Source of the DNA: Bacillota bacterium
GTDB lineage: Bacteria; Bacillota; Clostridia; SK-Y3
DNA length: 40,986 nt
Direction of reading: 5' to 3'
NCBI GenBank assembly: GCA_022360955.1
Contig: JAKSBV010000001.1
Location: 1 to 40,986 of the forward strand
Below, piece after piece: positions 1 to 40,450 of this stretch. The position numbers and the translations under genes are program-made. The notes below the pieces were generated by a model, which searched no databases, was not told where the DNA came from, and saw only the letters and a list, made by a program, of their open reading frames with translations. Positions within the stretch are counted from its first letter, which is position 1, and every line of letters starts with the position of its first letter.

Positions 1-723
1 AACAAAGACTCTGTTTCCCTTAATGCCTATGAGGAAATGGCTGAGTATTATTTAAAATATGTTGATACAAAGCCATTCAATGCGTATTATGAGAGGCCTG
101 CAACAATATCACTGCTCCCGGACGTCAAAGGAAAACATGTTTTAGACGCAGCATGTGCAGCAGGCTGGTATACTAAATGGCTTTTGGATAACGGTGCCAA
201 TGTTACAGCAATGGATTTCAGCCCGCAAATGATAGAAATGACCAGGAAAAGAGTCGGCAATGGTGCTAACGTTGTACGGGCCGACCTAAATGAACCCCTA
301 ACCATTATTGCAGACAACTCACTGGATGTTGTTTTATCATCTCTAACGCTTCATTATTTAAAAAGTTGGGAAATGGTAATGAGTGAGTTTAATAGAATAC
401 TAAAAGACGAAGGATATCTTGTTTTTTCCGTTCATCACCCTTTTATGGACTTTACGGCATTCAAAAAAGAAAATTATTTCTTGAATGAGTTAATAAACGA
501 TGAATGGCAAACGAACAACGGAACGGTTAAAGTACAATTCTATAGAAGGCCTTTAAATGCTATCATAGCGTCTGTTATTGATGCGGGATTTACAATAGAG
601 AAACTGCTGGAACCTATGCCAGTAAAACAACTCAAAGCAAAACACCCAAACATCTATGATAGATTAGCAAGAAAACCCCAGTTTTTATTTATAAGGGCCA
701 AAAAACAAAAGGTACTCGGATAA
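1..723 (+). CDS. Class I SAM-dependent methyltransferase (5' end outside window)
   Basis: The protein is a Rossmann-fold methyltransferase of the Methyltransf_11/UbiE-like group. Motif I (VLDAACAAGW) lies about residues 35-44 counted from the Met at base 37, the ribose-binding acid follows in AMDFSP near residue 60, and motif IV appears as LDVVLSSLTLHY. The reading frame is open from base 1, and the residues encoded before base 37 (NKDSVSLNAYEE) fit the family's N-terminal helix, so the true start probably lies upstream of the window. The stop is at 721-723. The substrate cannot be told from sequence; related proteins methylate small molecules. It converges on the RAMP operon, with a MITE-like hairpin between them. 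The fold is sure; the role is unknown. Confidence 0.85.
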   Translation, partial: NKDSVSLNAYEEMAEYYLKYVDTKPFNAYYERPATISLLPDVKGKHVLDAACAAGWYTKWLLDNGANVTAMDFSPQMIEMTRKRVGNGANVVRADLNEPLTIIADNSLDVVLSSLTLHYLKSWEMVMSEFNRILKDEGYLVFSVHHPFMDFTAFKKENYFLNELINDEWQTNNGTVKVQFYRRPLNAIIASVIDAGFTIEKLLEPMPVKQLKAKHPNIYDRLARKPQFLFIRAKKQKVLG

Positions 724-754
724 AGCAATGTGTTGAAATAGACTGATGAATTGG

Positions 755-857
755 ATAAAGATATCGCACTTTACACCTACATACATTTAAACAAACAACG
801 ATGGTTTTACGTTTTTTGTTTAAATATCAATTCAGGCTTAAAGTGCGATATCTTTAT
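755..857. repeat. MITE-like hairpin, copy A, between convergent genes
   Basis: A perfect 19-bp inverted repeat (755-773 against 839-857, core AAAGATATCGCACTTTA) encloses about 65 bp that contain a second, looser inverted repeat (GTTTAAATAT near 820-829 and its partner near 790). A shorter relative lies at 34777-34851. It could double as a transcription terminator for the methyltransferase and for the RAMP operon, because it sits between the two convergent gene ends. Confidence 0.75.
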
Positions 858-892
858 TTTAAATCTTGGGGCGTTTTCTTCCGGGAGGCCTC

Positions 893-3091
893 TCAGAAAC
901 TTTGGTTAAAGAAATTTCTTCGCAGTCGGCACCTGCTATTGTAACCTTTTCCTAATTTGATTTCCCAGTTGATATGCTTGGGGCCGGCCTTGGAAAGATC
1001 GATTTCCAGCTTACTTTGAATGTATCGTTCGAAATGCACGTTATCAAAATATTCTTCTTTCCCCATCTCCGTAATATAGGCGTCAATATATTCTTGCCAT
1101 GCTTTTATTGGCTCCATCGGCTCTAAAACCAACGACGCAAAATCGGTCTCTCCCTTTTCAATCTCCAGGCTCTGAATATCAATTTTTACTTTTCCATATC
1201 CGTAGGGTTTGGCGCCTCCTATCAAGTCATAGGTTTGCTCCAGCTTGTCTCGGTATTTGTCTGCAATCTCCTTGTATTTTTCGGATTTCAGCAATTGTCT
1301 TACGTCTACGCTAAGCAGCAGCAGACCCAGTTCGGCACTTGTCAAATTGCGGAACTCGATTTTCCCCTTCAAGCATGTAATACTGTTGTGCCCGATGATT
1401 TTTTTGGCGCTTAACATGTTTTCTCCCGATTTATCCTGCGCTTTAGGTATAAGGCTTTCTTTCAAAATATGATAATATTTATAACCGTTTAACTGAGGCT
1501 CTTTCTCTTGTTCATAGGTCTGCAGCTTTCCCTTGTCTTCCTGTTGAAGATACATGGCACTGCTGGAGGCAAAGGGAGTGGGCAGCAGCAATTCCCTGCA
1601 ATAGATCTTCGGATTGCCGACAATATCCACCGGGCCGAAACGCAACCGGGACTTATAGGCCATCTTAGACTCGCCGTCTCCACCTTGCTCCTCGGGAATA
1701 AAACCGAATAGAGCTCCGGCATAATCCACTCCGTCTTTTTCTTCCCTCTTTAATAGCTGTGTCAGCTGATGCCTGTAAGGAATCTTAAAGTAAGGCGTAC
1801 GCCCGATATACAATTCTTCTTTACCGGACGCTTTTGAATGCCGAAAAAATACGATAATCCCGTCAAAGCTCTTGCTCTCTTCTTCAAGTTTTTCCTTGAT
1901 CTCTTTTTCAAGTTCTTCATAGTTATCAAAAATATCATACTTTTTCTTGTCACCGGTATGGAATTTTTTTAAATATTGCCTGTAGCCGTCTATCACCGAC
2001 TGGGGTACCGGATATTCTGCAATCCTCGGCTCCGGTCCCAGCACAAAATAATGGCTCCGCTTGGAACGCACATTGTTCGAGTTAAATATATAAGCTTTAT
2101 TGGGCGTCTCTTTCGAAGGAGTAAAGGTCATCTTCTCAATGCCTTGCCCGGCATCCCCTTTATAAAATATATTTCTTTGGTAAGGAGGAAACTCGCTTTT
2201 TGTTTCCAGCAAGCCATATTTTATATATATTTCTGCTTTCCGCTGCCACCGTTCAACAGTTAACCGATAGAGTTTAGTCACCTCTTCATCATCAGAGGGA
2301 ATGATTTTTTTGATATCCTCCCATAAATTGTCCTTGATAGTCTCAAGAGAAGACTCGTAGCTCCTATTCGTTTTTTCAGCATTCTTGTAGATAGGGTCTA
2401 AATTTCTCTTAAAATTATACTTTGTACAAAAAATATTCGATATTTGATTCTGTATCTGACTTAATTTATCTTTTAGCTTCTCCCGCTGTGCTTTAATCTT
2501 CTTTGTCTTCTCCAGGATATCTTTTTGGAGTTTGTCAAATTCTTCTATTTTTGTATGACTCCATTTAAAAATGCGGAGTTCCTCCTTTAACCCCATCTTT
2601 ACCAGCCGGTGTTCTTTGATGGACAGAAAGTTTTTGTCCTCTGGATGATTCGTTTTTATTGTCCGGGCCGGAACCACATAAAACTCGTCTCCCACCTTCT
2701 TCAAAAAACCGACCCGAACCGCCCGTTCTATCCCTTTTTTCAATTCCATTCTTTCTTTATAGAAATGTGAGCGAAAGTCCCGGTAGAGCATGGGGCTGCG
2801 ATTGATAAACTCCTGATAAGCGGCGCTCAGTATTTCCAGATTGGACCGTATCTTCCCCCGAATCTGGCTGCCACCGATAAAATAACCGCCTCCCCATTTT
2901 TCCCTGACTTCCACAGCCAAATCGGAACAGGGCCTAACGGTATAATGGAGGCACCCAGATAGCCCGCTTTTGCCGTCATGTCCGGGGATATTCTTACGGG
3001 TATAAGAAAAAACAGTGTCTTTCGCAAAGGGCACAAAATCATAGGGAAGGGTGACGTAAACAGCATCGTCTTTATGCTTTGACATTTTCAT
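893..3091 (-). CDS. TIGR03986-type RAMP protein of a type III CRISPR effector
   Basis: This is a 732-residue RAMP (Cas7-like) protein, the last gene of the operon. The N-terminus (LPYDFVPF, then GHDG) and the RNA-binding RAMP motif FIGGSQIRGKIRSNLEIL (71-88) match the TIGR03986 family. The C-terminal domain has RNLTSAELGLLLLSV and the glycine-rich loop GGAKPYGYG (625-633). Between them is a long lysine/glutamate-rich predicted coiled coil, about residues 175-275, encoded by markedly AT-rich DNA near 2270-2560. In type III complexes such subunits form the crRNA-binding backbone. The start overlaps the csx19-like stop by 4 bp (ATGA), which implies translational coupling. Family assignment is by remembered motifs, not a search. 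Confidence 0.8.
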   Translation of the reverse strand: MKMSKHKDDAVYVTLPYDFVPFAKDTVFSYTRKNIPGHDGKSGLSGCLHYTVRPCSDLAVEVREKWGGGYFIGGSQIRGKIRSNLEILSAAYQEFINRSPMLYRDFRSHFYKERMELKKGIERAVRVGFLKKVGDEFYVVPARTIKTNHPEDKNFLSIKEHRLVKMGLKEELRIFKWSHTKIEEFDKLQKDILEKTKKIKAQREKLKDKLSQIQNQISNIFCTKYNFKRNLDPIYKNAEKTNRSYESSLETIKDNLWEDIKKIIPSDDEEVTKLYRLTVERWQRKAEIYIKYGLLETKSEFPPYQRNIFYKGDAGQGIEKMTFTPSKETPNKAYIFNSNNVRSKRSHYFVLGPEPRIAEYPVPQSVIDGYRQYLKKFHTGDKKKYDIFDNYEELEKEIKEKLEEESKSFDGIIVFFRHSKASGKEELYIGRTPYFKIPYRHQLTQLLKREEKDGVDYAGALFGFIPEEQGGDGESKMAYKSRLRFGPVDIVGNPKIYCRELLLPTPFASSSAMYLQQEDKGKLQTYEQEKEPQLNGYKYYHILKESLIPKAQDKSGENMLSAKKIIGHNSITCLKGKIEFRNLTSAELGLLLLSVDVRQLLKSEKYKEIADKYRDKLEQTYDLIGGAKPYGYGKVKIDIQSLEIEKGETDFASLVLEPMEPIKAWQEYIDAYITEMGKEEYFDNVHFERYIQSKLEIDLSKAGPKHINWEIKLGKGYNSRCRLRRNFFNQSF

Positions 3092-3480
3092 TCACCTGCC
3101 TTTTTCAATCGGTACAGGACCGTCTTTTCCACATAGGCCAGATGATCTTCATCGTAGCCTATATATTCTTTGACCTCCAGCGTGTCGTAATCGTCGGCCC
3201 CGTCCTTTTTCATAAAATTCTCCGCCAGCCGATAAGAACGGGTGATAACGCCGTCCTCCTGCCTGTCTTCGTGTTCCAGCGTTTGATAGCACACCAGCTC
3301 GTCTTGGCACCGCACCGCAAAGATTTCTTTTTGCTCATTAAACAGATGGACTTCCAAAACCGTATTACGTTCGACGGCTTCCCATAATACCTCATAGGGA
3401 TATTCCTTCGCCCGGCCCACCAGCACACGATCCAGCAAATGGGCAATAAAATAGTAATCGTCCATATCCGTCGCTGCCAT
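3088..3480 (-). CDS. csx19: Csx19-like small protein of a type III-D system
   Basis: This is a small protein of about 130 residues with alternating beta-strand character. It reads like TIGR03984/Csx19, a family usually found next to Csx10 and TIGR03986 RAMPs: LEVHLFNEQKEIFAVRC, then RSYRLAENF, and LEVKEYIGYDEDHLAYVEKTVL at the end. The role of Csx19 is not well established. I chose the ATG at 3480, preceded by GGAG at suitable spacing. A GTG at 3504, which overlaps the upstream stop and has AGGTGG before it, is an equally reasonable start; extending to the ATG at 3585 would overlap the preceding gene by 89 bp. Identification rests on context as much as sequence. Confidence 0.6.
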   Translation of the reverse strand: MAATDMDDYYFIAHLLDRVLVGRAKEYPYEVLWEAVERNTVLEVHLFNEQKEIFAVRCQDELVCYQTLEHEDRQEDGVITRSYRLAENFMKKDGADDYDTLEVKEYIGYDEDHLAYVEKTVLYRLKKAGE

Positions 3481-3496
3481 ATCAAATCTCCGAAGT

Positions 3497-4927
3497 CTAT
3501 TCACCGTCACACCACCTTTTAAAAGATTCAAACCATTGTTCCAGCTGCTTACGGTTCTCTTCCGACAAATTCCCCCCCGTCTCAATTGTCCGTAGTCCGT
3601 CTTTACCTACCGCGACCTCCACCTTTTGCGCCGAAAATCCACCCAGCCCGATCACCGTTCTGCCACCCAACGGCACCGTACCCGTACCGATTCTGCGCAA
3701 TACATAAATCAAGGGGAATATATAGGGGGTTATATCGCCGCCGTATTGGTCCGCCGACAGCTCAAAGCGGATTTTTGCTCTACCCTGAATCTCCTGCTGG
3801 TGTTTAAGAGCGGAAGCGTAAGCACCGCCCGTCAAACGATCGATTTTGACATAGATCGGCCCACGCTGCTCCTCTTGCCATTTTTTCTGTTCATTTTTTA
3901 CATATCTTTCAACCTGAACCTCCCGGCCCCCCTCAATCTGCAGGTCGGAAAACACCACTTTTCCCGGTGCCGCTTCCCCGCCGAACAGCTCCTCCAGCTT
4001 TTTGTCCGCAAGCGCCTTGTCCTTTATGCGTCTCAAGAGCAGTCGGATTTCGTTTTTGACCAGCCCTTTCACACTAGTTGAAGGAATGAAATAGCGACCC
4101 ATCTTTTTGAGCAGACCGGTAAGCTGTTGTCTGCCTTTGGAATCCTTCGCTGCGGCACCCCCTGTATTGTCGGCATTCTTAACGTCGAAACTCTGATAAA
4201 CACCGTAAGGAAACACCCCTTCCATCGAAAAAACCACCCTGCACCGGTCCTCCGACTCGTAATAGAGCAATTCCTTCCAATCCAACGCTTTCCCTTTTCG
4301 ATCTCTCGACCGAAAAATATATTGTTTCAAACATTCACCGCTGTCCAGCGGAAATACCGTTTTCTCCAGTTTTTCTAACCGGCATCGTCCGAAACCGTTG
4401 CTCTTTTGTCCGCCCAGCACAAGGCGCTGGGTCTCAAAGCCCTTGGCCCAAGTACCGATGATCTTCTCCAGTTCGGCTGCACACAATTCATCGTTTTCCT
4501 GCGTGTCGTCCCGTACATCCCCTTCGATTCGAAAGAAAATTTTTGTCTCCTCCGGCAGATGTTCCAAGGTATATTTGCTATGCTTTTCTGCCGCACCGTA
4601 GGCGGGATTGACGGCCGTGCCTTCTTTCCTGGAGTAACCGGTGGTTTTCGTCATCTTCCCGTCACTAATATAGATGCCGCTGGTCACAAAGGTCTCCTCG
4701 CCTTCTTCCCCCAGCTCAACGCCCCCCATATATTTGAGAATGATTTTATCCGGCACCCCGGTTTGTTTCAAATATTCCCGCAGCGCACCTCCGAGGGCAT
4801 TGCCCGGGATAACCGACCTGCCTTTGTCGCTTTGGAACAACGGGCTCTCCTGTCCGCTCTGTCCGTCACCAAAATAAAGGGGAGAAACGGCTTCGATCAA
4901 AAAATCATATATCACCTTTTGGTTCAT
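3497..4927 (-). CDS. Double RAMP (Cas7-Cas7 type) CRISPR type III subunit
   Basis: This 476-residue protein contains two consecutive RAMP units. Unit 1 has IPGNALGGALRE (40-51) and the G-rich loop GGQKSNGFGR (172-181). Unit 2 has IPSTSVKGLVKNEIR (281-295), the Cas7-typical KIDRLTGGAYASAL segment (361-374) and a second G-rich loop GGRTVIGLGG (421-430). Such fusions place two Cas7 backbone units in one chain and occur in type III-D. In unit 1 the loop before the RAMP motif, where Csm3-type proteins carry a catalytic Asp (in a DNP-like context), reads GQESPL here, so RNA cleavage by this unit is uncertain. The start overlaps csx10 by 23 bp. It is preceded by a GGGGG/AGGG-rich site. Confidence 0.82.
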   Translation of the reverse strand: MNQKVIYDFLIEAVSPLYFGDGQSGQESPLFQSDKGRSVIPGNALGGALREYLKQTGVPDKIILKYMGGVELGEEGEETFVTSGIYISDGKMTKTTGYSRKEGTAVNPAYGAAEKHSKYTLEHLPEETKIFFRIEGDVRDDTQENDELCAAELEKIIGTWAKGFETQRLVLGGQKSNGFGRCRLEKLEKTVFPLDSGECLKQYIFRSRDRKGKALDWKELLYYESEDRCRVVFSMEGVFPYGVYQSFDVKNADNTGGAAAKDSKGRQQLTGLLKKMGRYFIPSTSVKGLVKNEIRLLLRRIKDKALADKKLEELFGGEAAPGKVVFSDLQIEGGREVQVERYVKNEQKKWQEEQRGPIYVKIDRLTGGAYASALKHQQEIQGRAKIRFELSADQYGGDITPYIFPLIYVLRRIGTGTVPLGGRTVIGLGGFSAQKVEVAVGKDGLRTIETGGNLSEENRKQLEQWFESFKRWCDGE

Positions 4928-6608
4928 TGACCCTACCCCCTATACGAATGGATAATCCCATGTCTAACAATTCCGCGATAAGTTGTCTTTTGGGATACTT
5001 AGCATCGGCATAAAACAAACGCCCTTGACGAGTATCCAACTTGTGCTTCGCATATTGAATCAGAAAATCGCTTTTGCCGCTGTGCAAATATTTTATAATA
5101 GTCTCAAAATTGGCCTTGGCAATGGAACACAGGCTATTGTCATTTTTATAAAAACGTGCGGAAGTCTCCGGTTTATAAGCATCGGGCTCGAAATTGCTTT
5201 TGAGTTTTTTCAGCGGTGCTTCCAGCAGATGCCGCATCTGACGATAATGCGCCTTCTTTAGTTGTTCGGAAATGATAATTTTTTTTGCGTCGGCTTCTTG
5301 CTCGCTTTTCCCCCATGATTTTTTGCAAATCATTTTTAACCAACGGACTTTTGCCCCTTCCAAACCGGATAGAAGGACGTCCATTACCTGCCCGATCTTT
5401 TCTTCCTGCCGCAACTCCTTTAAGTCCTGCGGCTCCTCCGGCCGCTCATTTTTCTGCCGCTTGTCTTCTGCCACCAGCAGCTTTTGCGGATAAGGAAGGT
5501 TGACACCGATCCATCCTAAGCCATCCTGGTTACGGCTGCCCAGCAGCCGACTTTCCAATGCTTCCGCAATTTTTTGCAATTCCTTTTCGCTCTTTATCTG
5601 CCCTGCAAACGTATACTGCAGCACCGAACCTGCCTTGAGGGTGGTTTCTTTAGGATACCAGGCCTGCCAGGTAGTATTATAACCTTCTGTGAGACCTGTC
5701 TGTACGCATCGCCCTTTTAACACGACTTCTTGTCCGCAGATTTCTGCAATCGTTTTTTCCGGAATAAAATCCACCGGCTGCCCGTAGTCATTGCGAAGAA
5801 TAACATCGGACAAACAAGTAATCCTCAGTTCTTCCCCTGTTCTCCCGTCAAACTCCGTGCACAACGTGACCGGCAGGCCTAGAAGTTCCTTGGCCGCCCG
5901 GTAATCCGTCAGCACCTCGCCGCATAACTTCCATCGACACAATCCGTATCCGGAACTCCTGGAGCCTCCCAGATACACCTGGGGCTCCTGTTGAAACACA
6001 GACTCTATCGTCTCCTGCAGTTCAGGGGCGAAGCGGATAATCGTGCGAAAAGTCTGTTCCGCCGCCATAGCCTGATAACGAAATAAGTTCTCTTTTTTCT
6101 CTTTACGGACATTTTTGCTGCTGCTGTGATGCAGCCGGTATTCTTTGGCTACTTTCACACCGGCTAAATACTGCTCCTTTTGGCCGTCCAGCACCTCCTC
6201 CCTTGACGTCACAAAACGATATGCCGGAGCATTTTTAGAACCTTGACCTTCCCCTGCACCCAGCAGGTCGGTCAGCCCAACCAACGGCTTATGGTCCTGT
6301 CTCCTGTCATCATACGCCGCCTTCTTTTCCCTCCAATCATGCTTGTCCATACGCAGATGCCGGGGAACGGGCAGATACAGTCTGTTGTTGCGATAAGGGT
6401 AGGCGTTGTAACACGCCATCTTCAACAAAATCGTTTCCTTTTCCTGCTCAAAGGTTCCCTCACGCACCAACCGACTTATAACAGCCCCCCGGAGCGTGGA
6501 ACCGGGAATATACTCTTTGGAAGGCTCCGTCTGACTGGCCTTGCTGCCTCCAGCGCCGATTTTCAGGGGTTCTTCGGTGGTAATTTGGATCACGCTATAA
6601 CGCCACAT
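4905..6608 (-). CDS. csx10: Csx10-like RAMP (Cas5-type) subunit
   Basis: This 567-residue protein begins like Csx10 (TIGR02674): an initial strand ITTEEPLKIGAG, then IPGSTLRGAV (34-43), in the place where the family has an IPGSxLRG motif. The glycine-rich loop GGSRSSGYG is at 214-222, and a second ferredoxin-like unit follows (residues about 230-390, with YTFAGQIKSE and DGLGWIGVN). The last 170 residues are basic and largely helical, an extension that could bind RNA or replace a small subunit; this is inference. Csx10 acts as the Cas5-like subunit that caps the crRNA 5' end in type III-D complexes. It overlaps the upstream RAMP gene by 19 bp. Confidence 0.78.
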   Translation of the reverse strand: MWRYSVIQITTEEPLKIGAGGSKASQTEPSKEYIPGSTLRGAVISRLVREGTFEQEKETILLKMACYNAYPYRNNRLYLPVPRHLRMDKHDWREKKAAYDDRRQDHKPLVGLTDLLGAGEGQGSKNAPAYRFVTSREEVLDGQKEQYLAGVKVAKEYRLHHSSSKNVRKEKKENLFRYQAMAAEQTFRTIIRFAPELQETIESVFQQEPQVYLGGSRSSGYGLCRWKLCGEVLTDYRAAKELLGLPVTLCTEFDGRTGEELRITCLSDVILRNDYGQPVDFIPEKTIAEICGQEVVLKGRCVQTGLTEGYNTTWQAWYPKETTLKAGSVLQYTFAGQIKSEKELQKIAEALESRLLGSRNQDGLGWIGVNLPYPQKLLVAEDKRQKNERPEEPQDLKELRQEEKIGQVMDVLLSGLEGAKVRWLKMICKKSWGKSEQEADAKKIIISEQLKKAHYRQMRHLLEAPLKKLKSNFEPDAYKPETSARFYKNDNSLCSIAKANFETIIKYLHSGKSDFLIQYAKHKLDTRQGRLFYADAKYPKRQLIAELLDMGLSIRIGGRVNEPKGDI

Positions 6609-7321
6609 GCTGTTTCACCTTCTTTATTTCTTTTATTTACATCAGCCATATCCCTGCCATCCACCAGCAGCCGCGTCTCCACCTCTCCTCGTCCCCGGTG
6701 AATACCTGCGCCAATCCTGTCCAACGAACGAACAATAAGGTGCAAATCTTCCAAATATGGGACCGGATTGGCGTCAAAAGATAAAGACGAATAAAATATC
6801 AGACCTTCTTTCACGGTATGGTAGGTGGTCAGCCGCTTGTCTTTAGCCTTACCGTCCTCCAATTGGATACCTGTCCGGATACGGGTTTGGGCCTCAATCA
6901 AATCGTGGGGAGAAATACTATAATATTCATCCCGGGCATCTTGCGACTGTAACGCGATAAAGTATTTTCTGATACGCTTGTCCAATTCCAAAGAACTGAG
7001 TTTCATCATGCCCTCGCCGCATAAAGAGAATTCCGACTCCATATTAATCCTTTGCAATTCTGCCCTGTTGATGCCGAATAATGCGCTGACGGACGTTAAA
7101 AAAGATGCCTGTCGCTCCGGGTCAAACCTCCCGTATTGCCGCAAGATCCAGAAGGCCTGCCGCTTGAGCTGGCCCTTCAGGGACTTGGCATGAAAATACA
7201 CCAAACCGTAGCGGTTGGTTAAAACCTTGTTATGGACCAGATTGCGTTCCTTTTCACCACTGCTGAATATGGCTTCACTGCAAATCCGCACTTCTATTTT
7301 ATAATTCTGCTTCCGTGACAT
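6590..7321 (-). CDS. Cas7/Csm3-like RAMP protein
   Basis: This is a single-domain RAMP of 243 residues. The RAMP helix motif HAKSLKGQLKRQ is at 44-55 and the C-terminal glycine-rich loop GAGIHRGRGE at 204-213, both typical of Cas7-type backbone proteins that bind crRNA. The segment DGKAKDKRLTTYHTVKEGLIFYSSLSF fits the central beta-hairpin of Csm3-like proteins. The residue that would be the catalytic Asp of Csm3 is not obvious in the N-terminal loop (NKVLTNRYG). The gene begins inside the 3' end of cas10 (23-bp overlap) behind AGGAGG at 9-bp spacing, which supports ATG 7321. Confidence 0.8.
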   Translation of the reverse strand: MSRKQNYKIEVRICSEAIFSSGEKERNLVHNKVLTNRYGLVYFHAKSLKGQLKRQAFWILRQYGRFDPERQASFLTSVSALFGINRAELQRINMESEFSLCGEGMMKLSSLELDKRIRKYFIALQSQDARDEYYSISPHDLIEAQTRIRTGIQLEDGKAKDKRLTTYHTVKEGLIFYSSLSFDANPVPYLEDLHLIVRSLDRIGAGIHRGRGEVETRLLVDGRDMADVNKRNKEGETACGVIA

Positions 7322-8924
7322 ATGCCCCCACCTCCTGATTGCTCATAAACGGCAGAACATCCAACACGTCGTTTAAAATGTAAGTATAGGATGTAATCCG
7401 CCCTTCCTCACTGATCCGTGCGGCATTTCTGCAGATGCAGCTGTCGCCGAAAATATCCTGCACTATATCGGTCAAACGCTTGCTGCCTTGACGCATTTCA
7501 AAAAACAGCTCATACTGCTCCCAGCCACCATAGAGGTTGCGTTTCAAATCTTCCAGCAGGGAAGTACTGACTTCTTCGTCCCGGCGGATTTTTCCAACTA
7601 AACGCATAAATGCCTTGTAACTGTAAATGCCTTCTTCTGTTACCGCTTGTTGTTGTCCAATGCAAAGAGGCTTGATGTGAAAACTCTCTCCATCCCTCCC
7701 GTGTTTCACATAATTTTCATAGGCTTTGTCCCTTTCCACCTGCCCCTGGAGAATTTCCCAATCAATGAAGGAAACATCTGCCGGGCGACCCTCCTTGTCC
7801 TTCGCCTTATACCGCATTTCCTTGGCCCGGTGGCACAAGGCTTCGGCTGCTTTCACCGCCTCAAAAAACGGATAGGTATATTTGACAATGGCCACACCGG
7901 CGCAAGCGGTGAACGCTCCGCCAGATAGTATTTCCTTTATAAAGGAGTCCCTTTGTTTTTCCAGTTCATAAATCCCTTCGATATTTTGAAGTATTTTGGC
8001 GGCGATTTCAATGGCGTATTCCGCCTCTGTAATGAGACAAATATCGTCACCGGCCATCAGTATGGGAGTGACATAGAAAGACGGTGATGTTTCAACTTCT
8101 TTATGGCCGGAAACAAATCTGTCAAAGCTCTTTAAGGCATCAATTACTGCTGTTTGATAGATATTTTCAACCTCCTTGCCGAAAGCGGTCAACCGTTCAA
8201 AGGTCGAAATCCGCTGCAGCATCTCCCCCATTCTATTGCCGTCAATCACCAGAACACCGATATAGCTTTTGCCTTCCTCATTTTTTTTATAGTGCTGCAA
8301 TTCAGAGGTTATTTTTATTCGGGTCCCCGCCAATCTTTGCTCAAATCTTTGGTGCAAATAATTTCTAGACAGCTTGTGATGCTGTCTTGGCTCACCCTCG
8401 TTACTCCGTTCTGCCTGCCCCGTCTCGTCTATTTTTTCCACCCCATAGGTCCAGCGACGGAACCTGGCCCGGCGCTTTTCTTTTAATTGATCTGCCTTTT
8501 TATACAGCAGTGCACGGATTTGTTTCTCCTGCTCCTCCCCATCCCCGATACCCTCTTCCGTATCATTGACCAGGCTGATATAGAGCTCCAAATCCGGATA
8601 GGCTTTTAAGACCTCTCTCGAATATCCTTGCACAAACGCCTTCCCCTGCGCCAAGTCCTTAAACCGGACAATGCTGTTGCCGCCGCCCGAATGAACAACT
8701 TCACTTTGATCGGGGTGGTACTTTTGTAAATACCCGCTGAGTGAAATCCCCACCTCCTCCGAATCCATTCCTTCCATCTTTTCGGTTACGGATTTGATAA
8801 TGAAGGAATTGTTCAGATTGTCGCTCAGCTTATTGTGCTTGTAAATGAATGCCTGCTTCCGGGATACATCAATGTACGCATATGCAGCCACGGTAACCCC
8901 CCTTTTCTTCTTTTTTCTTTCCAT
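7299..8924 (-). CDS. cas10: Cas10-like palm-domain protein without HD domain
   Basis: This is the signature subunit of type III systems. Palm 1 covers roughly residues 15-120 (YIDVSRKQAFIYKHNKL, then SGGGNSIVRF at 79-88). Palm 2 holds VLVIDGNRMGEML (224-236) and the nucleotidyl-cyclase active-site hairpin, which reads AGDD (291-294) instead of GGDD, followed by ICLITE. A helical C-terminal D4-like region follows. There is no N-terminal HD nuclease domain; 541 residues is short for Cas10. The two acidic residues needed for cyclic oligoadenylate synthesis are kept. The first codons encode a lysine run behind a poor ribosome binding site; a GTG at 8891, preceded by AGGGGGG, may be the true start. 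It lies 29 bp after the nuclease gene. Confidence 0.82.
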   Translation of the reverse strand: MERKKKKRGVTVAAYAYIDVSRKQAFIYKHNKLSDNLNNSFIIKSVTEKMEGMDSEEVGISLSGYLQKYHPDQSEVVHSGGGNSIVRFKDLAQGKAFVQGYSREVLKAYPDLELYISLVNDTEEGIGDGEEQEKQIRALLYKKADQLKEKRRARFRRWTYGVEKIDETGQAERSNEGEPRQHHKLSRNYLHQRFEQRLAGTRIKITSELQHYKKNEEGKSYIGVLVIDGNRMGEMLQRISTFERLTAFGKEVENIYQTAVIDALKSFDRFVSGHKEVETSPSFYVTPILMAGDDICLITEAEYAIEIAAKILQNIEGIYELEKQRDSFIKEILSGGAFTACAGVAIVKYTYPFFEAVKAAEALCHRAKEMRYKAKDKEGRPADVSFIDWEILQGQVERDKAYENYVKHGRDGESFHIKPLCIGQQQAVTEEGIYSYKAFMRLVGKIRRDEEVSTSLLEDLKRNLYGGWEQYELFFEMRQGSKRLTDIVQDIFGDSCICRNAARISEEGRITSYTYILNDVLDVLPFMSNQEVGAYVTEAEL

Positions 8925-8953
8925 CCCCGTTTATTACCCGGCCGAGTTTTTGC

Positions 8954-9976
8954 CTATTTTTCTCTTACGTCGTCAAGCTTGTCCCTAAACATCTTGGCAT
9001 AGGCGAAATGTGGAAACAGCATCGGATTGTTGAACAGCATAAGCAGCTGATTTAACTGCAGATTCAAAGACAACAGGGCATTGTCCGTCACTTCCAAATC
9101 CTTCAAGGTATTTTTAAGGACAGTACCCTTCTCACCTTTAAAAAGTTTTAATTCCCCATACTTGTTACACGTCTCATCCTCAAACCCCTTGTTACTTATT
9201 TCCAGATATCCTTTGGCATCCCCGTCCTCTTTACCATTTTGATTGTTTTCTTTATTATTTAGCCTGTCTCCCCACCAGCCGAGGGGCTTTTCTTCATTTT
9301 TAATCAATACTTCAAACATCTCGCCCTTTTTACCTTCTTCGTTCACCTGCCAGACAATAAAATCAAAATAATCCCCCAGCTCTTTCTTCGTATTTTCCCG
9401 TGATTCTTCATTCCCGCCGGTTCGCCTAAGGGAGGCTAAGATCTTAATAGTCCGGGTACTTTGCTGCGTCCGGTTGGTTATACCTGTAACATAACCGCTT
9501 ACCATTCTGGCCACCCCGGATTGACGGGTGCATAAAGCGTCTATGCTCTCTGCCCATTTTTTTAATTTTGCTTTATCCCAACAGGTGCTTTTACACTCGA
9601 TCACCATCGCCACCGCTTCGATAGGGATAAATTTTAACGTGTTATATTGGAAGACATAGGGGGTATATTGCTCGTCAAACACGGCAATATCCACTTCTTT
9701 AGACACCTTCCCTTGGGAGTCGATAATCATCACCCCTTGGGCCAATGAAAACTTTTGAGGCAGAATGCCCCTGAAAAATTTAACCCACATTTGTTCCCTG
9801 TGGTTTCCGGTTAGGCCGTTGTGCTCAGAAGCAAGGTTCATTTCTTCTACCATCATTCTGTTCAGATCGTTGTAATTATTGCTGATTCTTTCAAATACCT
9901 TGGTCTCCCCGGACTTTTCCGTCTTGTTGTCATTTGTTCCTGTATTACTTTGATCTTTCCCGTTGTTATCAGCCAT
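8954..9976 (-). CDS. DUF6602-like PD-(D/E)XK nuclease, leader gene of the RAMP operon
   Basis: The protein has 340 residues. After a polar, low-complexity N-terminus (1-25) comes a segment with GNHRE (57-61) and LPQKFSLAQGVMI, then EVDIAVFDE with Asp96, and IPIEAVAMVIECKS with Glu127 and Lys129. The D...E-x-K spacing and the predicted strands are those of a restriction-endonuclease-like (PD-(D/E)XK) core as found in DUF6602 proteins. I infer DNA or RNA cleavage, possibly as an accessory to the Cas10/RAMP complex. No CARF or other ligand-sensing domain is visible. The start is supported by GGGAGGG upstream. The C-terminal third (about 230-340) is not recognised. Confidence 0.72.
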   Translation of the reverse strand: MADNNGKDQSNTGTNDNKTEKSGETKVFERISNNYNDLNRMMVEEMNLASEHNGLTGNHREQMWVKFFRGILPQKFSLAQGVMIIDSQGKVSKEVDIAVFDEQYTPYVFQYNTLKFIPIEAVAMVIECKSTCWDKAKLKKWAESIDALCTRQSGVARMVSGYVTGITNRTQQSTRTIKILASLRRTGGNEESRENTKKELGDYFDFIVWQVNEEGKKGEMFEVLIKNEEKPLGWWGDRLNNKENNQNGKEDGDAKGYLEISNKGFEDETCNKYGELKLFKGEKGTVLKNTLKDLEVTDNALLSLNLQLNQLLMLFNNPMLFPHFAYAKMFRDKLDDVREK

Positions 9977-10029
9977 TTTTGACCCTCCCTGTATACAAAC
10001 CTTCTGTTTGCATAGTAATAAGCTTGCTA

Positions 10030-10242
10030 TTATAATGCTCCCTCATTGAAAAGACCCTTTTTTAAAAAAATTACGCCGGATGTTCCCTTCATTTGGATAT
10101 ACTTGCTCCAACATTTTGCATTGTTCGGATTTTTTTGGCCAGACATTTTCATAAAAAAATTGCCAGATCTGCTGAACTGTTCGTCCTGGTTCTTTACTGC
10201 TTCCTGTGATTTTTTGCCAACGGCAGCAGCCATTTTATTCAT
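10030..10242 (-). CDS. Possible small protein ahead of the nuclease gene
   Basis: This is a 70-codon frame, 53 bp upstream of the DUF6602 gene and in the same direction. The product would be basic and mostly polar (many Lys, Asn, Gln), with no signal peptide, membrane segment or known domain. The site before the ATG at 10242 (AGAAG about 9 bp upstream) is weak, and a second Met follows at codon 4. It may be a real small leader gene of the operon, or chance. I do not recognise it. Confidence 0.3.
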   Translation of the reverse strand: MNKMAAAVGKKSQEAVKNQDEQFSRSGNFFMKMSGQKNPNNAKCWSKYIQMKGTSGVIFLKKGLFNEGAL

Positions 10243-10630
10243 CGCTTTAGTCTTCTATGGGTACATTTCATTAAATTGAAAAATATTATGAAAATACCCT
10301 TTTATACAGTATTTATACTCTTATTTTAACTTATTTTGGACATTTTGTCTCTATTGGTTTCCACTATGGATATCGCTGGTTTAAAACAGTCCTGTATTTT
10401 GAAGCAAAAATACATAAAATCTATTGCATTTTTCGTGTTGAAGGAACGAATGCATATCGTACGCGATAGGAACAAGAAAAAAGAAAGGGGCTCAAACCCT
10501 TTCCGTATTAGTGGGATTTTACAGTATCAAATAACCTATGGATATGATGCGTCATAGGTCTCAAAACCGAATGAAATAAAAACCAATTATGTTTACATAG
10601 AAATATATAAAATGGAAACTCTTTCACTCT
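10243..10630. other. Intergenic region upstream of the RAMP operon, no array
   Basis: These 390 bases hold no convincing gene. I looked for direct repeats with regular spacing and found none, so no CRISPR array lies in the place where a leader-proximal array could be expected. A single GTTTCC...TTTAAAAC segment at 10359-10389 vaguely resembles a type III repeat but occurs once. Confidence 0.6.
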
Positions 10631-19667: not shown

Positions 19668-19980
19668 GAATGTCCTCCTTGTTCATCCTTTAGAATTGTC
19701 CTATCCTATTATACTCTTATTTGTCCCCATTATCTATAGCTTTTACAAGAAACATTACAGATAAAGATAACGCTCTGCAACCTTATGACCGGAGGTCGGA
19801 GGGCAGAGGACGGAAGTCGGAATATGGCCAAAGAGGAGTACAAAGTAATCGGCAACAATAGTTCCATGCGATCGGAGAAATCCGGAGGCACATATCAAAC
19901 AAAGCGGAGAACATTGTTCTCCGCTTTGTTTGATATGTGCTGAAAAATGACAGATATCCCAGGGTACAGAAGAGGGCGCT
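19668..19980. other. Intergenic region with heptad tract and terminator
   Basis: No gene is seen. It contains a five-unit heptad tract (GGAGGTC, GGAGGGC, AGAGGAC, GGAAGTC, GGAATAT at 19791-19825) and the long palindrome described separately. Confidence 0.75.
19888..19940. terminator. 53-bp near-perfect palindrome after glgA
   Basis: A 26-bp arm (19888-19913) is followed by one base and its exact complement (19915-19940). The core is AAGCGGAGAACA. It follows the glgA stop on the minus strand and most likely terminates the glycogen operon. Confidence 0.75.
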
Positions 19981-39535: not shown

Positions 39536-39587
39536 TAGAACAGAGGACGGTTCTTCGTTCTAGAACCAAGAACCGTCCTCTGTTCTA
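39536..39587. repeat. REP-like palindrome 1
   Basis: Perfect 20-bp arms (39536-39555, core GAACAGAGGACGGTTCTT, and 39568-39587) with a 12-base loop. It lies at the end of the ABC permease gene and supplies the last codons and stop of the opposing small membrane gene. Confidence 0.85.
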
Positions 39588-39879: not shown

Positions 39880-39929
39880 AGAACAGGGGACGGTTCTCCG
39901 TTTTAGAACGGAGAGCCGTCCCCTGTTCT
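39880..39929. repeat. REP-like palindrome 2
   Basis: Arms of 23 bp (39880-39902, core GAACAGGGGACGGTTCTCC, and 39907-39929) with one mismatch and a 4-base loop. It supplies the last codons and stop of the Spo0E-like gene. Confidence 0.85.
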
Positions 39930-40338: not shown

Positions 40339-40401
40339 TTTTCCTCTTTCATTGATTATATCTATTTTTGACGAAAAATGCAAGATTTTTTTGGATAAAA
40401 T

Positions 40402-40441
40402 GGGTGACGGTTCTTTGTTCTAAAGCAAAGAACCGTCACCC
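40402..40441. repeat. REP-like palindrome 3, purL terminator
   Basis: Perfect 16-bp arms (GGGTGACGGTTCTTTG 40402-40417 and 40426-40441) share the GACGGTTCT core with palindromes 1 and 2. It lies 10 bp after the purL stop and probably ends that transcript. Confidence 0.85.
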
Positions 40442-40450
40442 GTTCTAGTA

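What the first reader, a model, noticed from the sequence alone, without database searches (positions are those of the whole stretch)
893..9976. Array-less type III-D-like RAMP/Cas10 operon with a built-in nuclease gene
Seven same-strand genes overlap or abut: DUF6602-like nuclease, Cas10, Cas7-like RAMP, Csx10-like, double RAMP, Csx19-like, TIGR03986 RAMP. Seen directly: no CRISPR repeats, Cas1, Cas2, Cas6 or CARF protein within 41 kb. Known: most type III loci have at least some of these, while a few RAMP islands (for example the haloarchaeal HRAMP) lack them. Inference: the complex may borrow crRNAs from a distant array, use another guide, or act without one.
Basis: partly seen in the sequence, partly recalled or inferred. 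Interest (0 to 1): 0.78.

Follow-up and report, generated by a model that had tools for sequence, protein, structure and literature searches.

The report
Type III-D CRISPR alarm with NucC
A bacterial RNA-sensing CRISPR complex, from a lineage that seems to have stopped cutting its RNA target and instead signals a companion DNA-cutting enzyme, sits here on a piece of draft genome without a guide array, although its closest relatives have one.

Summary
The seven-gene operon is real (893-9976, minus strand). It is a type III-D CRISPR effector whose first gene, the "DUF6602 nuclease", is NucC, a family known as a cA3-activated DNase; hence no CARF protein is needed. "Array-less" holds for the window, but the window is one whole contig of a 522-contig draft and the operon ends 892 bp from its edge. 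The same assembly holds a type I-B cas cluster with Cas6b and many arrays. In a Cas10 tree the window groups (support 100) with 16 Bacillota loci. All 16 carry NucC and have a Cas6 in the locus or genome; 12 have an array in the stretch read, and 3 more elsewhere in the genome. Guide-free action is not supported; guides from elsewhere in the genome, or an array lost at the contig edge, are. The lineage is the interesting part: no recognised HD nuclease, intact cyclase and NucC residues, and the first Cas7 target-cutting aspartate missing (0 of 17, against 49 of 51 other III-D), probably a second too. It looks like a sense-and-signal type III system. The window's member is odd in that no array with its relatives' handle was found in its assembly. 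New variant of a known kind; nothing was tested in the laboratory.

The parts
8954..9976 (-). nucC, first gene: 340-aa NucC-family DNase (DUF6602)
   Evidence: PADLOC NucC 2.8e-83; Pfam DUF6602 7.3e-24; phmmer to five solved NucC sequences; model matches only NucC structures at E 0.001 or better, 14 of 14; D96, E127, K129 and Y104 invariant in 20 of 20
7299..8924 (-). cas10 (III-D type), 541 aa, cyclase motif AGDD, no HD domain recognised
   Evidence: PADLOC Cas10d 2.3e-70; Pfam Cas10 palm2 2.3e-11; PDB 8s9t_C 1.7e-14; GDD invariant in 16 of 16 clade sequences aligned
6590..7321 (-). cas7 (single), 243 aa; His30 at the place of the first target-cutting aspartate
   Evidence: PADLOC Cas7_IIId 5.1e-26; model closest to 8s9t_A, Z 16.5; Asp in 0 of 17 clade, 49 of 51 outgroup
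4905..6608 (-). csx10 (Cas5 of III-D, probably with a Cas11-like tail), 567 aa
   Evidence: PADLOC Cas5_IIId 9.7e-41; TIGR02674 3.2e-14, below its cut-off
3497..4927 (-). double Cas7 (Cas7-2x like), 476 aa
   Evidence: Pfam RAMPs 1.8e-19, two stretches; PDB 8s9t_D Cas7-2x 6e-11, clade profile 1.5e-32
3088..3585 (-). csx19, 165 aa (true start may lie further in, as the ORF overlaps its neighbour by 89 bp)
   Evidence: TIGR03984 7.7e-08, 32.2 bits against a cut-off of 35; PADLOC Csx19 4.6e-10
893..3091 (-). TIGR03986 RAMP (Cas7 with an insertion), 732 aa
   Evidence: TIGR03986 169.6 bits, above its cut-off of 161.35; PADLOC Cas7_IIId 2e-61
9977..10630 (.). non-coding stretch upstream of nucC, where many relatives have cas6 and an array; neither was found here
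   Evidence: sequence read; no Cas6 match; Cas6 beside the operon in relatives
1..892 (.). all the sequence the contig holds beyond the operon's 3' end: a convergent methyltransferase gene (37-723) and an inverted repeat (755-857), no array

Best explanation
This is a crRNA-guided type III-D effector that works as an alarm. The Cas7 proteins, Csx10, Csx19 and the TIGR03986 subunit hold a guide RNA (inferred from the homologous Synechocystis III-Dv complex). When the guide pairs with a foreign transcript, Cas10 makes cyclic tri-adenylate (inferred from its intact cyclase motif and the linked NucC) and NucC cuts DNA in the cell (inferred from the biochemistry of its family). Cas10 has no recognised HD nuclease, and the Cas7 aspartates that cut the bound transcript are missing in this lineage (the first clearly, another probably), so the complex probably senses without cutting and switches off slowly, favouring death or dormancy of the infected cell. 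Guides come either from elsewhere in the genome (I-B arrays processed by Cas6b) or from an array missing from the draft assembly; I slightly favour the former.
For: Subunit set and order as in III-D. NucC identity by profile, sequence and fold, with catalytic residues kept in 20 of 20. GDD of the cyclase invariant in the 16 clade sequences aligned; AGDD and SGDD occur in loci with known effectors and only 3% of III-D loci have an HD domain (PMC11229360, passages). Window and 16 relatives, all with NucC, are one side of a branch in the Cas10 tree, support 100. First Cas7 aspartate 0 of 17 against 49 of 51; the column taken for the third site 1 of 17 against 40 of 61. All 16 relatives have Cas6 and 15 of 16 an array in the locus or genome. 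Own assembly has Cas6b and 54 repeats. cA3-NucC signalling shown by others for III-A and III-B (PMC13060164, PMC8682760, passages).
Against: No experiment. In the own assembly no ATTGAAAY array was found while adjacent arrays of relatives end in ATTGRAAY, so loading of I-B guides ending ATTTAAAT is unproven. The I-B cas contig has GC 0.341 against 0.415 for the window outside the operon and a tetranucleotide correlation (0.86) that some foreign controls also reach, in a bin with 4.4% contamination. The third-site loss is alignment-dependent: a pairwise alignment puts a window Asp opposite D246. The loop of the first site is modelled with pLDDT under 50. Other type III systems with NucC keep the Cas7 Asp, and in Serratia loss of target cutting weakened interference.
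Confidence: 0.65

Rival explanations
1. The operon has its own array, and perhaps a Cas6, just beyond the contig edge or in an unassembled repeat. It is an ordinary complete III-D locus, and 'array-less' is an assembly artefact.
For: The contig ends 892 bp after the operon. In 12 of 12 relatives with a nearby array the nearest lies 111-1793 bp from the operon, and two of the eight downstream gaps exceed 892 bp. Several contigs of the assembly break inside arrays. Three of ten sampled contigs gave no readable bases.
Against: No array in 31 kb upstream or 892 bp downstream, although six of the eight downstream gaps in relatives are under 892 bp; no ATTGAAAY triplet in the searched assembly; a convergent gene and not a leader follows the operon.
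Confidence: 0.35
2. The complex works without a crRNA, or with another kind of guide, like HRAMP-type array-less systems.
For: No array or cas6 in the window; array-less systems derived from type III are often linked to PD-(D/E)xK nucleases (PMC12669027, passages).
Against: Every near relative has a Cas6 and 15 of 16 an array in the locus or genome; the nearest relative L043 has both elsewhere in its genome; Csx10 and Csx19 are kept.
Confidence: 0.05
3. The operon is a recently orphaned remnant: it lost its array and cas6 and is no longer used.
For: No own array or Cas6, and no ATTGAAAY array found in the searched assembly.
Against: All seven frames are open; cyclase and nuclease residues are kept; identity to the sister locus L043 is even, 58-68% for NucC, Cas10, Cas7 and the double Cas7.
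Confidence: 0.12

Closest known systems
Synechocystis type III-Dv effector (PDB 8S9T; PMC11026444, passages)
   Same: Cas10, a first Cas7 plus Csx10, Cas7-2x, Csx19 and Cas7-insertion in the same order; cas10 and Cas7-2x matches by sequence, Cas7 by fold
   Different: There Cas7-Cas5-Cas11 is one protein, three Cas7 aspartates cut target RNA, the effectors are Csm6 and Csx1, and cas6, adaptation genes and an array are adjacent
Virgibacillus pantothenticus type III-D locus with nucC and a nucC-cas10 fusion (PMC11229360, passages)
   Same: Type III-D with NucC
   Different: It has a NucC-Cas10 fusion besides a separate NucC; its Cas7 residues and its place in the clade were not examined here
Vibrio metoecus III-B and Serratia III-A systems with NucC (PMC8682760, PMC13060164, passages)
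   Same: Type III signalling by cA3 to NucC, without working Cas10 HD nuclease
   Different: Other subtypes, and their Cas7 (Cmr4 D26, Csm3 D34) still cuts target RNA
[quoted passage not shown]
   Same: Cas7 catalytic aspartates not conserved; III-G has no array and is thought to recruit crRNA from elsewhere
   Different: They keep an HD nuclease and have an inactivated cyclase, the reverse of the combination here
HRAMP and ARAMP (PMC12669027, passages)
   Same: No array beside the window's operon; a PD-(D/E)xK-type nuclease gene
   Different: The lineage as a whole has arrays and Cas6

Membership tests
CRISPR type III-D | Csx10 (III-D type Cas5) | tested here: met
   PADLOC Cas5_IIId 9.7e-41; TIGR02674 3.2e-14 but below its curated cut-off
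CRISPR type III-D | Cas10 of III-D type | tested here: met
   PADLOC Cas10d 2.3e-70 is the best model
CRISPR type III-D | Csx19 (often present) | tested here: met
   PADLOC Csx19 4.6e-10; TIGR03984 slightly below its cut-off; same position in the 16 relatives
CRISPR type III-D | crRNA from a CRISPR array | tested here: inconclusive
   None in the window; arrays in 15 of 16 relatives' loci or genomes; own arrays are of another type
Type III-Dv variant | Fused Cas7-Cas5-Cas11 | tested here: not met
   Cas7 and Csx10 are separate ORFs
Type III-Dv variant | Cas7-2x and Cas7-insertion | tested here: met
   8s9t_D match; TIGR03986 above its cut-off; the insertion itself was not modelled
NucC | Fold and D/E/K catalytic residues | tested here: met
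   14 of 14 structure matches at E 0.001 or better; residues invariant in 20 of 20; residue roles recalled, numbering matched through
NucC | Activation by cA3 | not testable with these tools
   One recalled cA3 contact (Tyr) is kept and another (Arg) is Lys in all 19 sequences that cover it
Target-cutting type III effectors | Catalytic Asp in Cas7 | tested here: not met
   First site: His30 in the window, Asp in 0 of 17 of the clade against 49 of 51 outgroup; third site less sure, 1 of 17 against 40 of 61; second site variable in both groups
HRAMP or ARAMP | Array-less as a lineage | tested here: not met
   12 of 16 near relatives have an array in the stretch read and 3 more in the genome

The most novel reading that the evidence does not exclude
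A monophyletic III-D lineage in Bacillota has shed both classical type III nuclease activities, the Cas10 HD domain and Cas7 target cutting, and kept only sensing, cA3 synthesis and an ever-present NucC: a crRNA-guided counterpart of CBASS. The member in this window has gone further, giving up its own Cas6 and array and running on I-B guides with a handle (ATTTAAAT) not seen in its relatives' adjacent arrays.
Probability: 0.33. Interest if true: 0.68.

Novelty: new variant of a known kind. Interest (0 to 1): 0.5.

Why it matters
In well-studied type III systems, cutting the target RNA is thought to be an off-switch of the signal. A lineage that keeps the cyclase and a DNA-destroying effector but has lost cutting would be a natural test of what that off-switch is for, and a source of long-signalling RNA detectors. 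The window's member also poses a clean question: can a III-D complex load guides with a foreign type I-B handle?

Tried and rejected
Cas6 by PF10040 in the own genome found nothing although a Cas6b is there, so that negative was dropped. A first Cas6 survey of relatives with PDLC01121 gave 4 of 15; it was superseded by TIGR01877 (9 of 16 genomes over the cut-off, own included) plus reading the genes upstream of NucC.

I considered that the Paenibacillus and Sporosarcina loci borrow I-C guides processed by Cas5c, because their repeats look I-C-like (recalled); set aside when a Cas6 gene turned up beside the arrays. I considered that the array beside L054 has a handle special to it; dropped, because arrays on another contig of that genome share it.

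Mobile-element carriage: a Cas10 search of plasmids gave four weak cyanobacterial matches, a viral-contig scan with the clade profile found no relative, and the neighbours are housekeeping genes. NucC searches gave two weak phage hits and 101 plasmid records, of which 10 were listed and one, a near relative in a III-B operon, was followed.

The careful tree did not finish; the quick tree is reported. phmmer of Csx10 and of the TIGR03986 subunit against the PDB found nothing at E 0.001. The profile of the single Cas7 gave only weak Cmr4 matches that do not cover the first site, and that loop is modelled with low confidence, so structure does not confirm the residue. A search on DUF6602 or type III CRISPR gave no paper naming DUF6602 among the 8 of 526 listed; a search for NucC, Cas10 and Paenibacillus together gave none.

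Rows dropped or special: L053 is left out of alignment A5 because its cas10 is split into two frames, but its larger piece is in the tree; L043 is cut inside the last gene; L048 NucC lacks its N-terminus; sequences outside length limits were left out of the Cas7 counts, and Cas10 outgroup pieces of 430 aa or less out of the tree; of the 51 outgroup Cas7 sequences 50 are distinct, of 61 double Cas7 60. For the ATTGAAAY detector 10 of the 15 held relatives' genomes were given.
Full report
OBSERVATION. Seven minus-strand genes run from 9976 to 893, overlapping by 4-89 bp, with a 29 bp gap only between the first two. In transcription order they are NucC, Cas10, a single Cas7, Csx10, a double Cas7, Csx19 and a TIGR03986 RAMP. 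The window holds no CRISPR array, no Rfam match and no Cas6 trace (ten Cas6 queries, best E 0.40). The 20 ORFs of 180 aa or more between 10 and 41 kb show no Cas or CARF family in Pfam; many are housekeeping: glycogen cluster, anaerobic ribonucleotide reductase, spore germination permease, adenosylhomocysteinase. Two things change their meaning.

FIRST, the nuclease is NucC. The DUF6602 label hides a PADLOC NucC match at 2.8e-83, phmmer matches to five solved NucC sequences and a predicted structure (pLDDT 78.6) whose 14 matches at E 0.001 or better are all NucC (TM-scores 0.31-0.54 and rmsd 6-9, so the overall superposition is loose). D96, E127, K129 and Y104 are invariant in 20 of 20 sequences.

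SECOND, the window is a whole contig: C229, 40986 bases, of a 4.64 Mb assembly in 522 contigs, 97% complete and 4.4% contaminated. The operon's 3' end is 892 bp from the contig end. 'No array within 41 kb' is therefore 31 kb on one side and under 1 kb on the other.

THE REST OF THE GENOME. Contig C374 holds cas6b-cas8b-cas7-cas5-cas3-cas4-cas1-cas2 and an array. Repeats matching GTTGAACC..AACATGAGATGTATTTAAAT with up to 3 mismatches occur 54 times on six contigs, none of them the window. Array contig C142 matches the window closely outside its arrays (GC 0.41 against 0.415, tetranucleotide correlation 0.94, above every sampled contig and foreign control). The cas contig is less alike (GC 0.341, correlation 0.86): the seven readable sample contigs span GC 0.36-0.44 and correlation 0.71-0.92, but eight foreign controls span 0.60-0.86, so composition does not prove that the cas contig belongs to this organism. 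Three of ten sampled contigs gave no readable bases, so the searches do not cover everything.

RELATIVES. A Cas10 profile found 197 relatives in the GTDB species genomes, of which the best 80 were kept. They show a clear gap: 16 loci at E 7e-78 or better, 64 at 7e-43 or weaker. All 16 carry the seven genes, NucC first in 14 and last in 2 (L054, L055); none of the 64 has a NucC match at E 0.001 in the stretch read, which is short for some. Damage: L043 is cut by its contig end, L048 NucC lacks its N-terminus, L053 cas10 is split into two frames. In a tree of 80 Cas10 proteins the window and the 16 form one side of a branch with SH-aLRT 100, and the window pairs with L043 at 99 (quick method, midpoint root). 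Members are Paenibacillus, Sporosarcina, Acetivibrio, Sedimentibacter, Anaeromonas, Anaerophilus, Alkaliphilus, Syntrophomonas and an unnamed Clostridiales bacterium, all Bacillota. A separate look at 391 genomes of the window's class found a Cas10 match in 13, own included; of the 12 others none had NucC in the stretch fetched.

GUIDES IN THE CLADE. Arrays were found in the stretch read for 12 of 16; the nearest lies 111-1793 bp from the operon. Of the other four, L043 and L057 are on short contigs; L043, L057 and L058 have arrays elsewhere in the genome (for L043 a single match), and the genome of L046 was not held. A Cas6 is present for 16 of 16: in the locus for L044, L046-L052, L056 and L058, and in the genome above the TIGR01877 cut-off for L043, L045, L053, L054, L055 and L057. 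The repeats differ in body between hosts, but in all 12 loci an adjacent array has repeats ending ATTGRAAY. A generic detector, three ATTGAAAY in register, finds arrays in all 10 of the relatives' genomes given to it (of 15 held) and none in the own assembly; one common repeat type was also absent there. Among the 64 distant III-D loci a simple, unvetted repeat detector flags arrays in 33, and in 5 of 12 of the class relatives. So arrays are usual but not universal beside III-D, and the window is the exception in its own clade: either it depends on guides made elsewhere, or the array is missing from the draft.

LOSS OF TARGET CUTTING. In the Synechocystis III-Dv complex the target-cutting residues are D26 of Cas7-Cas5-Cas11 and D33 and D246 of Cas7-2x (PMC11026444, passages). 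The window's single Cas7 corresponds to that first Cas7: its model (pLDDT 81.8) matches 8s9t_A best (Z 16.5, 209 residues, rmsd 9.4; 8s9x_A Z 16.3, rmsd 3.7). At the aligned place the window has His30; the clade has His, Gln or Glu in 17 of 17, while 49 of 51 outgroup III-D sequences have Asp and 2 Asn. In the double Cas7, an outgroup column with Asp in 40 of 61 has Asp in 1 of 17 of the clade. This second result is weaker: the loop varies in length, the profile alignments can be shifted by a few residues, and a pairwise alignment puts a window Asp, in an insertion that most of the clade lacks, opposite D246. The D33 place is variable in both groups. Against a simple 'NucC causes the loss' story, other type III systems with NucC keep the residue: a III-B operon led by the same NucC subfamily keeps VIDMP in Cmr4, and two Csm3-like proteins keep GGVD.

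MECHANISM. Shown by sequence: subunit set, NucC identity, no recognised HD domain, intact cyclase motif, missing first Cas7 aspartate. Inferred: crRNA binding, cA3 synthesis, NucC activation, death or dormancy of the infected cell, slow shut-off. HD domains occur in 3% of III-D loci, which are thought to act mainly by signalling; AGDD and SGDD are found in loci with known effectors; NucC is in 35 of 1113 type III loci (PMC11229360, passages). Vibrio III-B and Serratia III-A systems show the cA3-NucC step in practice (PMC8682760 and PMC13060164, passages). In Serratia, loss of Csm3 cutting weakened interference while cyclase and NucC mutants lost it, so cutting is helpful there; its loss in this clade would be a real departure.

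NOVELTY. III-D with NucC is in print (Virgibacillus, PMC11229360, passages), as are array-less type III loci and recruitment of crRNA from other loci (PMC12669027, passages). III-G and III-H also lack the Cas7 aspartates but keep HD and lose the cyclase. I found no description of a III-D/NucC lineage without target cutting in searches of an open-access library; beyond passages of five papers I read no full text, and no supplements. I rate it a new variant of a known kind.

Noticed in passing
L137 (NZ_CP145893.1 79880-104788): On a Paenibacillus amylolyticus plasmid the same NucC subfamily (52% identity) leads a III-B cmr operon beside type I-C genes; its Cmr4 keeps the catalytic aspartate motif.
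   Followed up: partly
L133, 2280-11583: A 57%-identical NucC precedes a different type III operon with a 693-aa Cas10 (extra N-terminal stretch), after cas3 and cas6.
   Followed up: partly
   Followed up: partly
L136, 9597-13305: A genome of the window's own family has a CBASS-like NucC beside an oligonucleotide cyclase, and a QatC-like gene next to them.
   Followed up: no
L051, 4383-5282 and 18441-19337: Two Cas6 copies 96% identical and several arrays flank the III-D/NucC operon on both sides.
   Followed up: no
L053, 9989-11501: cas10 of this Sedimentibacter locus is split into two overlapping frames (381 and 173 aa), perhaps a sequencing error or an inactivation.
   Followed up: no
window 39536-39587, 39880-39929, 40396-40447: Three near-perfect palindromes sharing an AGAACCGTC-like core, possibly a small repeated element.
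   Followed up: no
window 755-857: Inverted repeat, 24 bp arms, between the converging ends of the methyltransferase gene and the operon; a two-way terminator is a guess.
   Followed up: no
window 19888-19940: Perfect 26-bp inverted repeat with a one-base loop.
   Followed up: no
own genome contigs C34, C142, C295, C374, C441, C491 and C57: The I-B arrays use several repeat sub-variants differing in the middle bases; a Cas6b tail at the edge of C57 hints at a second, broken-off I-B locus.
   Followed up: no
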